Made by a program: the position numbers and the translations under genes
Notes under the pieces: generated by a model
The model's input: the letters and a program-made list of their open reading frames with translations, nothing else
The model's database searches: none
Told to the model about the DNA's origin: nothing
Source of the DNA: Chlorobiaceae bacterium
GTDB taxonomy: Bacteria; Bacteroidota; Ignavibacteria; Ignavibacteriales; Ignavibacteriaceae
Reading direction: 5' to 3'
NCBI GenBank assembly: GCA_013824085.1
Contig: PNNF01000002.1
Coordinates: 1-64,000 of the forward strand
Length of the DNA stretch: 64,000 nt
Shown here: piece by piece, positions 25,181 to 25,505 of the stretch
Numbering within the stretch: position 1 is the first letter of the stretch
Layout of the letters: each line of letters starts with the position of its first letter

Positions 25181-25432
25181 GCGGGAATAGCTCAGTTGGT
25201 AGAGCGACAATCCCGACAGATTCGGGATGATGTCGCAGTGTTCTTATAAATTGGATTTTTTTATGCGGGAATAGCTCAGTTGGTAGAGCGACAATCCCGA
25301 CAGATTCGGGATGATGTCGCGGTGTTCTTATAAATTGGATTTTTTTATGCGGGAATAGCTCAGTTGGTAGAGCGACAATCCCGACAGATTCGGGATGATG
25401 TCGCAGTGTTCTTATAAATTGGATTTTTTTAT
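25181..25432 (+). repeat. Three tandem 84-bp repeats carrying degenerate tRNA-Gly 5' halves
   Basis: Units start at 25181, 25265 and 25349; the genuine tRNA-Gly begins exactly 84 bp later at 25433. Each unit copies the acceptor 5' strand and D-arm of tRNA-Gly (GCGGGAATAGCTCAG...). It then replaces the anticodon arm with a palindrome (ATCCCGA, 5-nt loop, TCGGGAT), rejoins the variable-loop sequence GATGTCGC, and continues with a T-rich spacer instead of the T-arm and acceptor 3' strand. The units differ from one another by only about one base. A related spacer (25157-25180) precedes the first unit. They cannot fold as full tRNAs. Confidence 0.9.
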
Positions 25433-25505
25433 GCGGGAATAGCTCAGTTGGTAGAGCGCAACCTTGCCAAGGTTGATGTCGCGGGTTCAAGTCCCGTTTC
25501 CCGCT
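25433..25505 (+). tRNA. tRNA-Gly (anticodon GCC)
   Basis: 73 nt with acceptor stem GCGGGAA/TTCCCGC, D-arm AGCTCAGTTGGTAGAGC, anticodon stem AACCT/AGGTT with loop TTGCCAA (anticodon GCC at 25466-25468), T-loop TTCAAGT and discriminator T. CCA is not encoded. A terminator hairpin follows. Confidence 0.97.

What the first reader, a model, noticed from the sequence alone, without database searches (positions are those of the whole stretch)
25181..25505. Tandem 84-bp array of tRNA-Gly 5' halves with a hairpin in place of the anticodon arm
Three near-identical 84-bp units precede the genuine tRNA-Gly at exact period. Each keeps the acceptor 5' strand and D-arm, swaps the anticodon arm for a CCCGA...TCGGG palindrome, and lacks the T-arm and acceptor 3' strand. 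The near-identity implies recent amplification or selection. The palindrome looks like a mobile hairpin inserted at the anticodon arm of an ancestral copy, then amplified. If transcribed, the array could give tRNA-Gly-derived RNAs that compete for processing or regulate glycine-tRNA supply. Integrative elements usually duplicate the 3' half, so this is a different pattern.
Basis: partly seen in the sequence, partly recalled or inferred. Interest (0 to 1): 0.62.

Follow-up and report, generated by a model that had tools for sequence, protein, structure and literature searches.

The report
Leftover array of a tRNA-invading element
The three hairpin-bearing half-tRNAs in front of this glycine tRNA gene look like the gene-less remains of a tiny selfish element: many related bacteria have the same kind of unit, sometimes complete with a small DNA-cutting GIY-YIG nuclease gene, nested in their tRNA genes and apparently undescribed.

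Summary
In detail: three 84-bp units (one mismatch between copies) precede a genuine tRNA-Gly(GCC). Each keeps the tRNA 5' strand and D-arm and carries TCCCGACAGATTCGGGA instead of the anticodon-arm core. The hairpin is longer than described (13 bp, GCGACA..TGTCGC outside), and the V-region and a piece of the T-arm survive.

It is not a one-off. Relatives carry such hairpin-bearing tRNA fragments at tRNA-Gly, Thr, Lys, Asn, Asp, Pro, Ser and Cys genes, among others, and many units contain a small GIY-YIG nuclease gene. In two Bacteroidota assemblies the order at the same tRNA-Gly(GCC) is 5' half, hairpin, GIY-YIG gene, genuine tRNA (312-bp unit). At the window's own tRNA-Gly/Cys locus in a relative, a nuclease-less 72-bp hairpin unit abuts a nuclease-bearing one. 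Of 59 unselected GIY-YIG loci, 32 have a same-strand tRNA within 700 bp and none an opposite-strand one.

Best reading: a nuclease-less derivative of a homing-like GIY-YIG element that nests in tRNA genes, supplies a fresh tRNA half, and leaves a displaced half with its arm swapped for an unrelated hairpin. Cleavage and mobility are inferred.

The parts
25070..25077 (+). promoter-like TATATTTG (Bacteroidota-type -7 element), upstream of the whole array
   Evidence: sequence; same motif upstream of array-free tRNA-Gly genes in relatives
25181..25264 (+). unit 1 (84 bp): tRNA-Gly 5' acceptor strand and D-arm, hairpin, V-region, T-arm remnant, spacer
25204..25236 (+). extended 13-bp hairpin of unit 1, core TCCCGACAGATTCGGGA at 25211-25227
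   Evidence: fold -18.1 kcal/mol; unique to the array in the genome
25265..25348 (+). unit 2 (84 bp), one base different
25349..25432 (+). unit 3 (84 bp), identical to unit 1
25433..25506 (+). genuine tRNA-Gly(GCC)
   Evidence: ARAGORN and Rfam RF00005, 72 bits
25513..25530 (+). terminator-like hairpin AATCCACGAAAGTGGATT after tRNA-Gly, followed by T-rich DNA
   Evidence: sequence
25556..25630 (+). tRNA-Cys(GCA); in several relatives the GIY-YIG element sits directly after this gene

Best explanation
The array is the nuclease-less remnant of a 5'-type tRNA-nested GIY-YIG element. Full units in relatives consist of a tRNA half, a hairpin that replaces part of an arm (usually the anticodon arm), and a small (about 80-100 aa) stand-alone GIY-YIG nuclease gene, next to an intact copy of the tRNA. 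In 5'-type elements the order is [5' half + hairpin][GIY-YIG][intact tRNA]; in 3'-type elements it is [intact tRNA][GIY-YIG][hairpin + 3' half]. Inferred mechanism: the nuclease cuts at or near the tRNA gene; repair from an element-bearing copy inserts the unit, which brings a replacement tRNA half, so the host keeps a working tRNA. The restored tRNA stays a target and neighbouring units are homologous, so units pile up as exact-period tandem arrays. Loss of the ORF by internal deletion leaves short hairpin units such as the 84-bp ones here, which can still expand by unequal recombination. The swapped hairpin probably removes the target from the displaced half, and stops the displaced arm from pairing with the identical self-complementary arm of the real tRNA in the shared transcript. 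Shown by sequence: unit anatomy, recurrence, association with GIY-YIG genes and tRNAs, conserved catalytic residues, nuclease-less and nuclease-bearing units side by side. Inferred: cleavage, mobility, role of the hairpin, and that this particular array once carried the nuclease gene.
For: Same tRNA-Gly(GCC), same hairpin position, with the GIY-YIG gene inside the unit: L099 and L170. tRNA-Pro array of three 317-bp units, each with 5' half, hairpin and GIY-YIG gene, upstream of the real tRNA (L220); L233. At the tRNA-Gly/Cys locus of relative G018 a nuclease-less 72-bp hairpin unit abuts nuclease-bearing units with the same ends. Own genome: the only two small GIY-YIG copies over the cut-off (one intact, one decayed) lie at tRNA-Asn, flanked on both sides by hairpin-bearing tRNA fragments. 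32 of 59 unselected GIY-YIG loci have a same-strand tRNA within 700 bp, 0 an opposite-strand one. 128 of 169 tRNA fragments overlap or adjoin a palindrome against 12.6% of random places. Exact-period GIY-YIG arrays. Predicted catalytic residues conserved. SegB, a GIY-YIG homing endonuclease, drives tandem amplification of a tRNA locus in phage T6 (PMC13096335).
Against: The window array itself holds no nuclease gene and no recognisable remnant of one. No cleavage, no mobility and no strain-level gain of a unit was shown. Some small GIY-YIG genes are not near tRNAs (27 of 59). Small stand-alone GIY-YIG proteins lack the DNA-binding domain usual in homing endonucleases. The folding argument for the hairpin holds in only about half of the loci tested and is reversed in one. 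Why so many hairpins share TCCCG..CGGGA is unexplained.
Confidence: 0.68

Rival explanations
1. No nuclease involved: ordinary tandem duplication of the tRNA gene by slippage at short repeats (GTTC occurs in the T-loop and in the leader), followed by decay of the spare copies and independent capture of palindromes; GIY-YIG genes merely like the same neighbourhoods.
For: Unit joints show GTTC microhomology. Hairpin-bearing fragments without any nuclease exist, as here and in L023 and L024. Palindromes also occur in D-loops and T-loops.
Against: Fragments and GIY-YIG genes form one repeated unit in many arrays; decay would not keep replacing arms by perfect hairpins; strand bias 32 to 0.
Confidence: 0.17
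2. A functional leader RNA: the hairpin units are kept because they regulate processing or supply of tRNA-Gly, or act as decoys for tRNA-cutting toxins.
For: The array lies between a promoter-like motif and the tRNA, so it is probably transcribed; the hairpin is stable; units are nearly identical.
Against: The array is absent at the same locus in most relatives; similar units sit at many different tRNAs and on either side; the units lack the acceptor 3' strand, so they cannot be charged; near-identity is explained by recent amplification.
Confidence: 0.08
3. Mobile palindromic repeat (REP/RAYT type) inserted into a spare tRNA copy, then amplified.
For: TCCCG..CGGGA palindromes are enriched in the genome (21 against 3); D-arm GGTAG resembles the GTAG tag of REPs.
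Against: The hairpin has no other copy within two mismatches; only one partial Y1 transposase match in the genome; hairpins differ from site to site.
Confidence: 0.04
4. Attachment-site scar of an integrative element, or an assembly artefact.
For: tRNA genes are common att sites; tandem repeats can be misassembled.
Against: Integrative elements usually restore the 3' half as an exact copy without a hairpin (own knowledge); no integrase is apparent among the ORFs around the array. Units differ by one base, and arrays with exact periods occur in one-contig genomes (G001, G019, G025).
Confidence: 0.03

Closest known systems
Phage SegB-type free-standing GIY-YIG homing endonucleases (T4/T6)
   Same: Stand-alone GIY-YIG gene next to tRNA genes; tandem amplification of the tRNA segment (PMC13096335).
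   Different: Here in bacterial chromosomes, a bare 80-100-aa catalytic domain, nested within the tRNA with a duplicated half and a hairpin-swapped arm; cleavage not shown.
UPF0213 / Slx1-like prokaryotic stand-alone GIY-YIG proteins (PDB 1YWL, 1ZG2)
   Same: Same size and domain, best solved matches.
   Different: That family was not linked to tRNA genes in the 2006 survey as far as searched (PMC1564403).
Organellar homing-endonuclease insertions that carry a replacement gene end (from memory, a lead only)
   Same: Element supplies a fresh copy of the part of the gene it displaces.
   Different: Protein genes in mitochondria, not bacterial tRNAs; no hairpin swap known to me.
REP / RAYT palindromes
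   Same: Short palindromes, some preceded by GTAG.
   Different: REPs are dispersed near-identical repeats; this hairpin is confined to the array.
Integrative elements at tRNA genes
   Same: Target tRNA kept intact by a supplied copy of part of it.
   Different: Normally the 3' half, exact copy, tyrosine integrase, many kb; none of these here.

Membership tests
Free-standing homing endonuclease gene element | encodes a nuclease of a homing family within the unit | tested here: not met
   Window unit has no ORF for one; met in related units L099, L170, L220, L246, L265
Free-standing homing endonuclease gene element | empty and occupied alleles at the same site | tested here: inconclusive
   Most relatives are empty at the tRNA-Gly/Cys locus and several are occupied, but they are different genera, not alleles of one species
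Free-standing homing endonuclease gene element | nuclease cleaves the unoccupied target | not testable with these tools
   Only conservation of catalytic residues could be seen
tRNA-nested GIY-YIG element (class described here) | tRNA half with a hairpin in place of an arm, adjacent to an intact tRNA of the same kind | tested here: met
tRNA-nested GIY-YIG element (class described here) | GIY-YIG gene in the unit | tested here: not met
   absent from the 84-bp unit; hence filed as a nuclease-less derivative only
REP / RAYT palindromes | many near-identical dispersed copies | tested here: not met
   only the array within two mismatches
REP / RAYT palindromes | Y1 (RAYT) transposase in the genome | tested here: inconclusive
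   one partial PF01797 match, 28 bits, on another contig
Integrative element att site | exact 3'-half duplication and an integrase | tested here: not met
   5' half with a changed arm; no integrase apparent among nearby ORFs
Functional tRNA or tmRNA gene | units recognised as tRNA | tested here: not met
   ARAGORN and Rfam call only the terminal copy

The most novel reading that the evidence does not exclude
Bacteroidota and some other phyla host a widespread, undescribed class of minimal mobile elements (about 70-450 bp): stand-alone GIY-YIG nuclease genes that nest in tRNA genes, supply a replacement tRNA half, and swap the arm of the displaced half for an arbitrary hairpin that both blocks re-cutting and keeps the leftover half from misfolding the host tRNA; the window array is its non-autonomous, MITE-like form.
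Probability: 0.5. Interest if true: 0.8.

Novelty: new variant of a known kind. Interest (0 to 1): 0.66.

Why it matters
If right, it gives a context to a very common but unexplained family (PF01541 matched in all 59 relatives searched, most matches listed being small stand-alone frames), shows a selfish element that lives in essential tRNA genes without killing the host by carrying a spare half, and explains puzzling pseudo-tRNA arrays. It is directly testable: the presumed target, the nuclease, and empty and occupied loci are all in hand, some in culturable genera such as Algoriphagus.

Tried and rejected
Mobile palindrome: exact and 2-mismatch search of the whole genome found only the array. 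REP/RAYT: one partial Y1 hit only. Intrinsic terminator inside the unit: the hairpin is not directly followed by a T-run. A decayed fourth unit upstream: written in the notebook early on, later not supported by alignment against shuffles. GTTCTT as a general tRNA promoter element: GTTCT is present in only 3 of 30 own-genome tRNA leaders, so it is more likely a by-product of duplication. A broad collection scan with the hairpin pattern was too loose in GC-rich genomes; most of its 120 loci are chance matches away from tRNAs, and only those next to tRNAs were used. The narrow pattern matched 15 of 395 genomes of the phylum (some by chance), 0 for the reversed control; it misses most variants, including the window itself. 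Paper searches for pseudo-tRNA arrays, GIY-YIG with tRNA genes and UPF0213, and for four literal hairpin sequences, found no description of this arrangement; the library lacks most subscription papers.

Full report
OBSERVATION. Window 25181-25432 holds three 84-bp units; units 1 and 3 are identical and unit 2 differs at one base. They run at exact period into a genuine tRNA-Gly(GCC), 25433-25506, followed by tRNA-Cys. Each unit reads GCGGGAATAGCTCAGTTGGTAGAGCG-ACAATCCCGACAGATTCGGGATGATGTCGC(A/G)G-TGTTC-TTATAAATTGGATTTTTTTAT. Against the real tRNA the apex of the anticodon arm (CCTTGCCAAGG) is exchanged for TCCCGACAGATTCGGGA; the V-region and the start of the T-arm survive. With one extra A the outer bases also pair (GCGACA/TGTCGC), giving a 13-bp hairpin of -18.1 kcal/mol. 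The palindrome is not chance and occurs nowhere else in the 2.65-Mb genome within two mismatches. A promoter-like TATATTTG (25070) lies upstream of the array, as it does upstream of array-free tRNA-Gly genes in relatives, so the array most likely occupies the transcribed leader.

NOT A ONE-OFF. At the tRNA-Gly/tRNA-Cys locus most relatives examined are free of fragments, but others carry hairpin-bearing ones: G030 has tRNA-Gly 5' units with TCCCGATTTTATCGGGA or TCCCGATACAATCGGGA, G021 one with TCCCGCAAATTGCGGGA, G027 two, G019 two with a palindrome in the D-loop, and several have tRNA-Cys fragments with CCCG..CGGG hairpins. Other tRNAs are affected too: in G030 tRNA-Thr and tRNA-Gly(TCC), in G010 fragments that look like tRNA-Thr. 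A collection scan showed the same next to tRNA-Lys, Thr, Gly, Pro, Asn and Val genes in named Bacteroidota records (Algoriphagus, Saprospiraceae, Cyclobacteriaceae, Sediminibacterium), an Ignavibacteria MAG, and a few Planctomycetes, Armatimonadetes and Fimbriimonas records. Hairpin sequences differ from site to site but are the same or nearly so within most arrays.

THE NUCLEASE. In the window's own genome a tRNA-Asn gene (contig C61) has the same anatomy on both sides: upstream a 5' fragment with ATCCCGATGAATCGGGAT; downstream the terminator, a small GIY-YIG ORF, then a 3' fragment whose T-loop is replaced by TCCCGAAGGCTTTCGGGA, the terminator again and a decayed second GIY-YIG copy. Those two are the only small GIY-YIG copies over the cut-off in the genome. 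In the 59 relatives PF01541 has 1-20 matches per genome, most of those listed being frames of 80-200 aa, many in exact-period tandem arrays. Reading them shows one architecture in two polarities. 3'-type: intact tRNA, GIY-YIG, hairpin, 3' half, repeated (tRNA-Asp, 5 units of 315 bp, L246; tRNA-Lys, L265; tRNA-Asn, L283). 5'-type: 5' half, hairpin, GIY-YIG, intact tRNA (tRNA-Pro, 3 units of 317 bp, L220; tRNA-Pro, L233; tRNA-Ser, L267). The ORFs are tightly fused to the tRNA sequence: in L265 the stop codon is the TAG of the D-loop GGTAG, in L246 it lies in the hairpin, in L099 the stop codon abuts the first base of the tRNA.

THE LINK TO THE WINDOW. L099 and L170 show the 5'-type at a tRNA-Gly(GCC), with the hairpin at the same place followed by GGGTCGCAAGTTC and the GIY-YIG start; unit 312 bp. 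The window unit aligns with it through the T-arm remnant and differs mainly by lacking the ORF. G018 shows how that can arise: at the tRNA-Gly/Cys locus a 72-bp nuclease-less hairpin unit abuts GIY-YIG-bearing units with matching end sequences. I therefore read the window array as a nuclease-less derivative of a 5'-type element. That it once carried the gene is inference; the 21-nt spacer holds no recognisable remnant.

STATISTICS. Of 59 GIY-YIG loci not chosen for a tRNA, 32 have a tRNA on the same strand within 700 bp and none on the opposite strand; in the one-per-genome set it is 12 of 30. Of 169 tRNA fragments near intact tRNAs, 128 overlap or adjoin a palindrome of at least 6 bp, against 12.6% of random places in the same loci (some of these palindromes are terminators and part of the loci were found by a hairpin pattern, so this is a rough figure).

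PROTEIN. The proteins are PF01541 (E 1e-16 to 1e-18), about 80-87 aa, a bare catalytic domain with conserved Y, G, R, H, N and E in all seven aligned; the best solved relatives are UPF0213 proteins 1YWL and 1ZG2, then Slx1. Weak matches to homing-endonuclease models exist (TIGR01453 below its cut-off; phrog_314 E 0.0009).

MECHANISM. Inferred: cleavage at the tRNA gene, repair from an element-bearing copy, restoration of the tRNA by the supplied half, re-insertion or recombination giving tandem arrays. A precedent for GIY-YIG-driven tandem amplification at a tRNA is SegB in phage T6 (PMC13096335). The hairpin: restoring the native anticodon arm in a window unit drops the predicted acceptor pairing of the real tRNA from 0.95 to about 0, because two copies of a self-complementary arm can pair with each other, while random hairpins are about as good as the real one. 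The effect is seen in about half of 14 loci and is reversed in one, so it remains a hypothesis; equilibrium folding ignores co-transcriptional folding. A second possible role is loss of the nuclease target.

KNOWN OR NEW. Free-standing homing endonucleases, SegB next to phage tRNAs, and elements that restore their target gene are known; nine paper searches found no description of chromosomal GIY-YIG units nested in tRNA genes with hairpin-swapped halves. I call it a new variant of a known kind. The novelty claim rests on a library without most subscription papers.

Noticed in passing
G000:C61:4508-5230 (L180, L207): Own-genome tRNA-Asn flanked on both sides by hairpin-bearing tRNA-Asn fragments, with one intact and one decayed small GIY-YIG gene: the full element in the same genome.
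   Followed up: yes
L225:1417-1752 (G001): A small GIY-YIG ORF interrupts a protein-coding frame and is bounded by an inverted repeat CCCCGTCAAAT..ATTTGACGGGG, suggesting that these genes also invade sites other than tRNAs.
   Followed up: no
L237, L250, L251, L256, L274: Small GIY-YIG genes away from tRNAs are also flanked by short palindromes (TCCCGCGAAAGCGGGA, TCCTGCCTCCGCAGGA, TCCGACCTGTCGGA), some repeated on both sides.
   Followed up: no
L032 (G001), downstream of tRNA-Cys: Repeated tRNA-Cys 3' fragments at about 92-bp period, with TTCTCCCAAAGGGATTCCTTCGGAAGAA where the T-arm 5' side should be; nuclease-less, like the window array but of the 3' type.
   Followed up: partly
window 35184-35399 (-): A GIY-YIG domain inside a frame of about 560 aa, probably a housekeeping DEDD-exonuclease/GIY-YIG protein rather than one of the small mobile ones.
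   Followed up: no
L092 (Candidatus Curtissbacteria), L074 and L135 (Planctomycetes): Small GIY-YIG genes next to tRNA-Asn outside Bacteroidota; in L074 and L135 with a hairpin-bearing tRNA-Asn fragment, so the arrangement may be far wider than one phylum.
   Followed up: partly
G000:C29:3539 and 3788 (L051): Imperfect repeats of about 250 bp containing TCCCGCCGGGGCGGGA, apparently in coding sequence.
   Followed up: no
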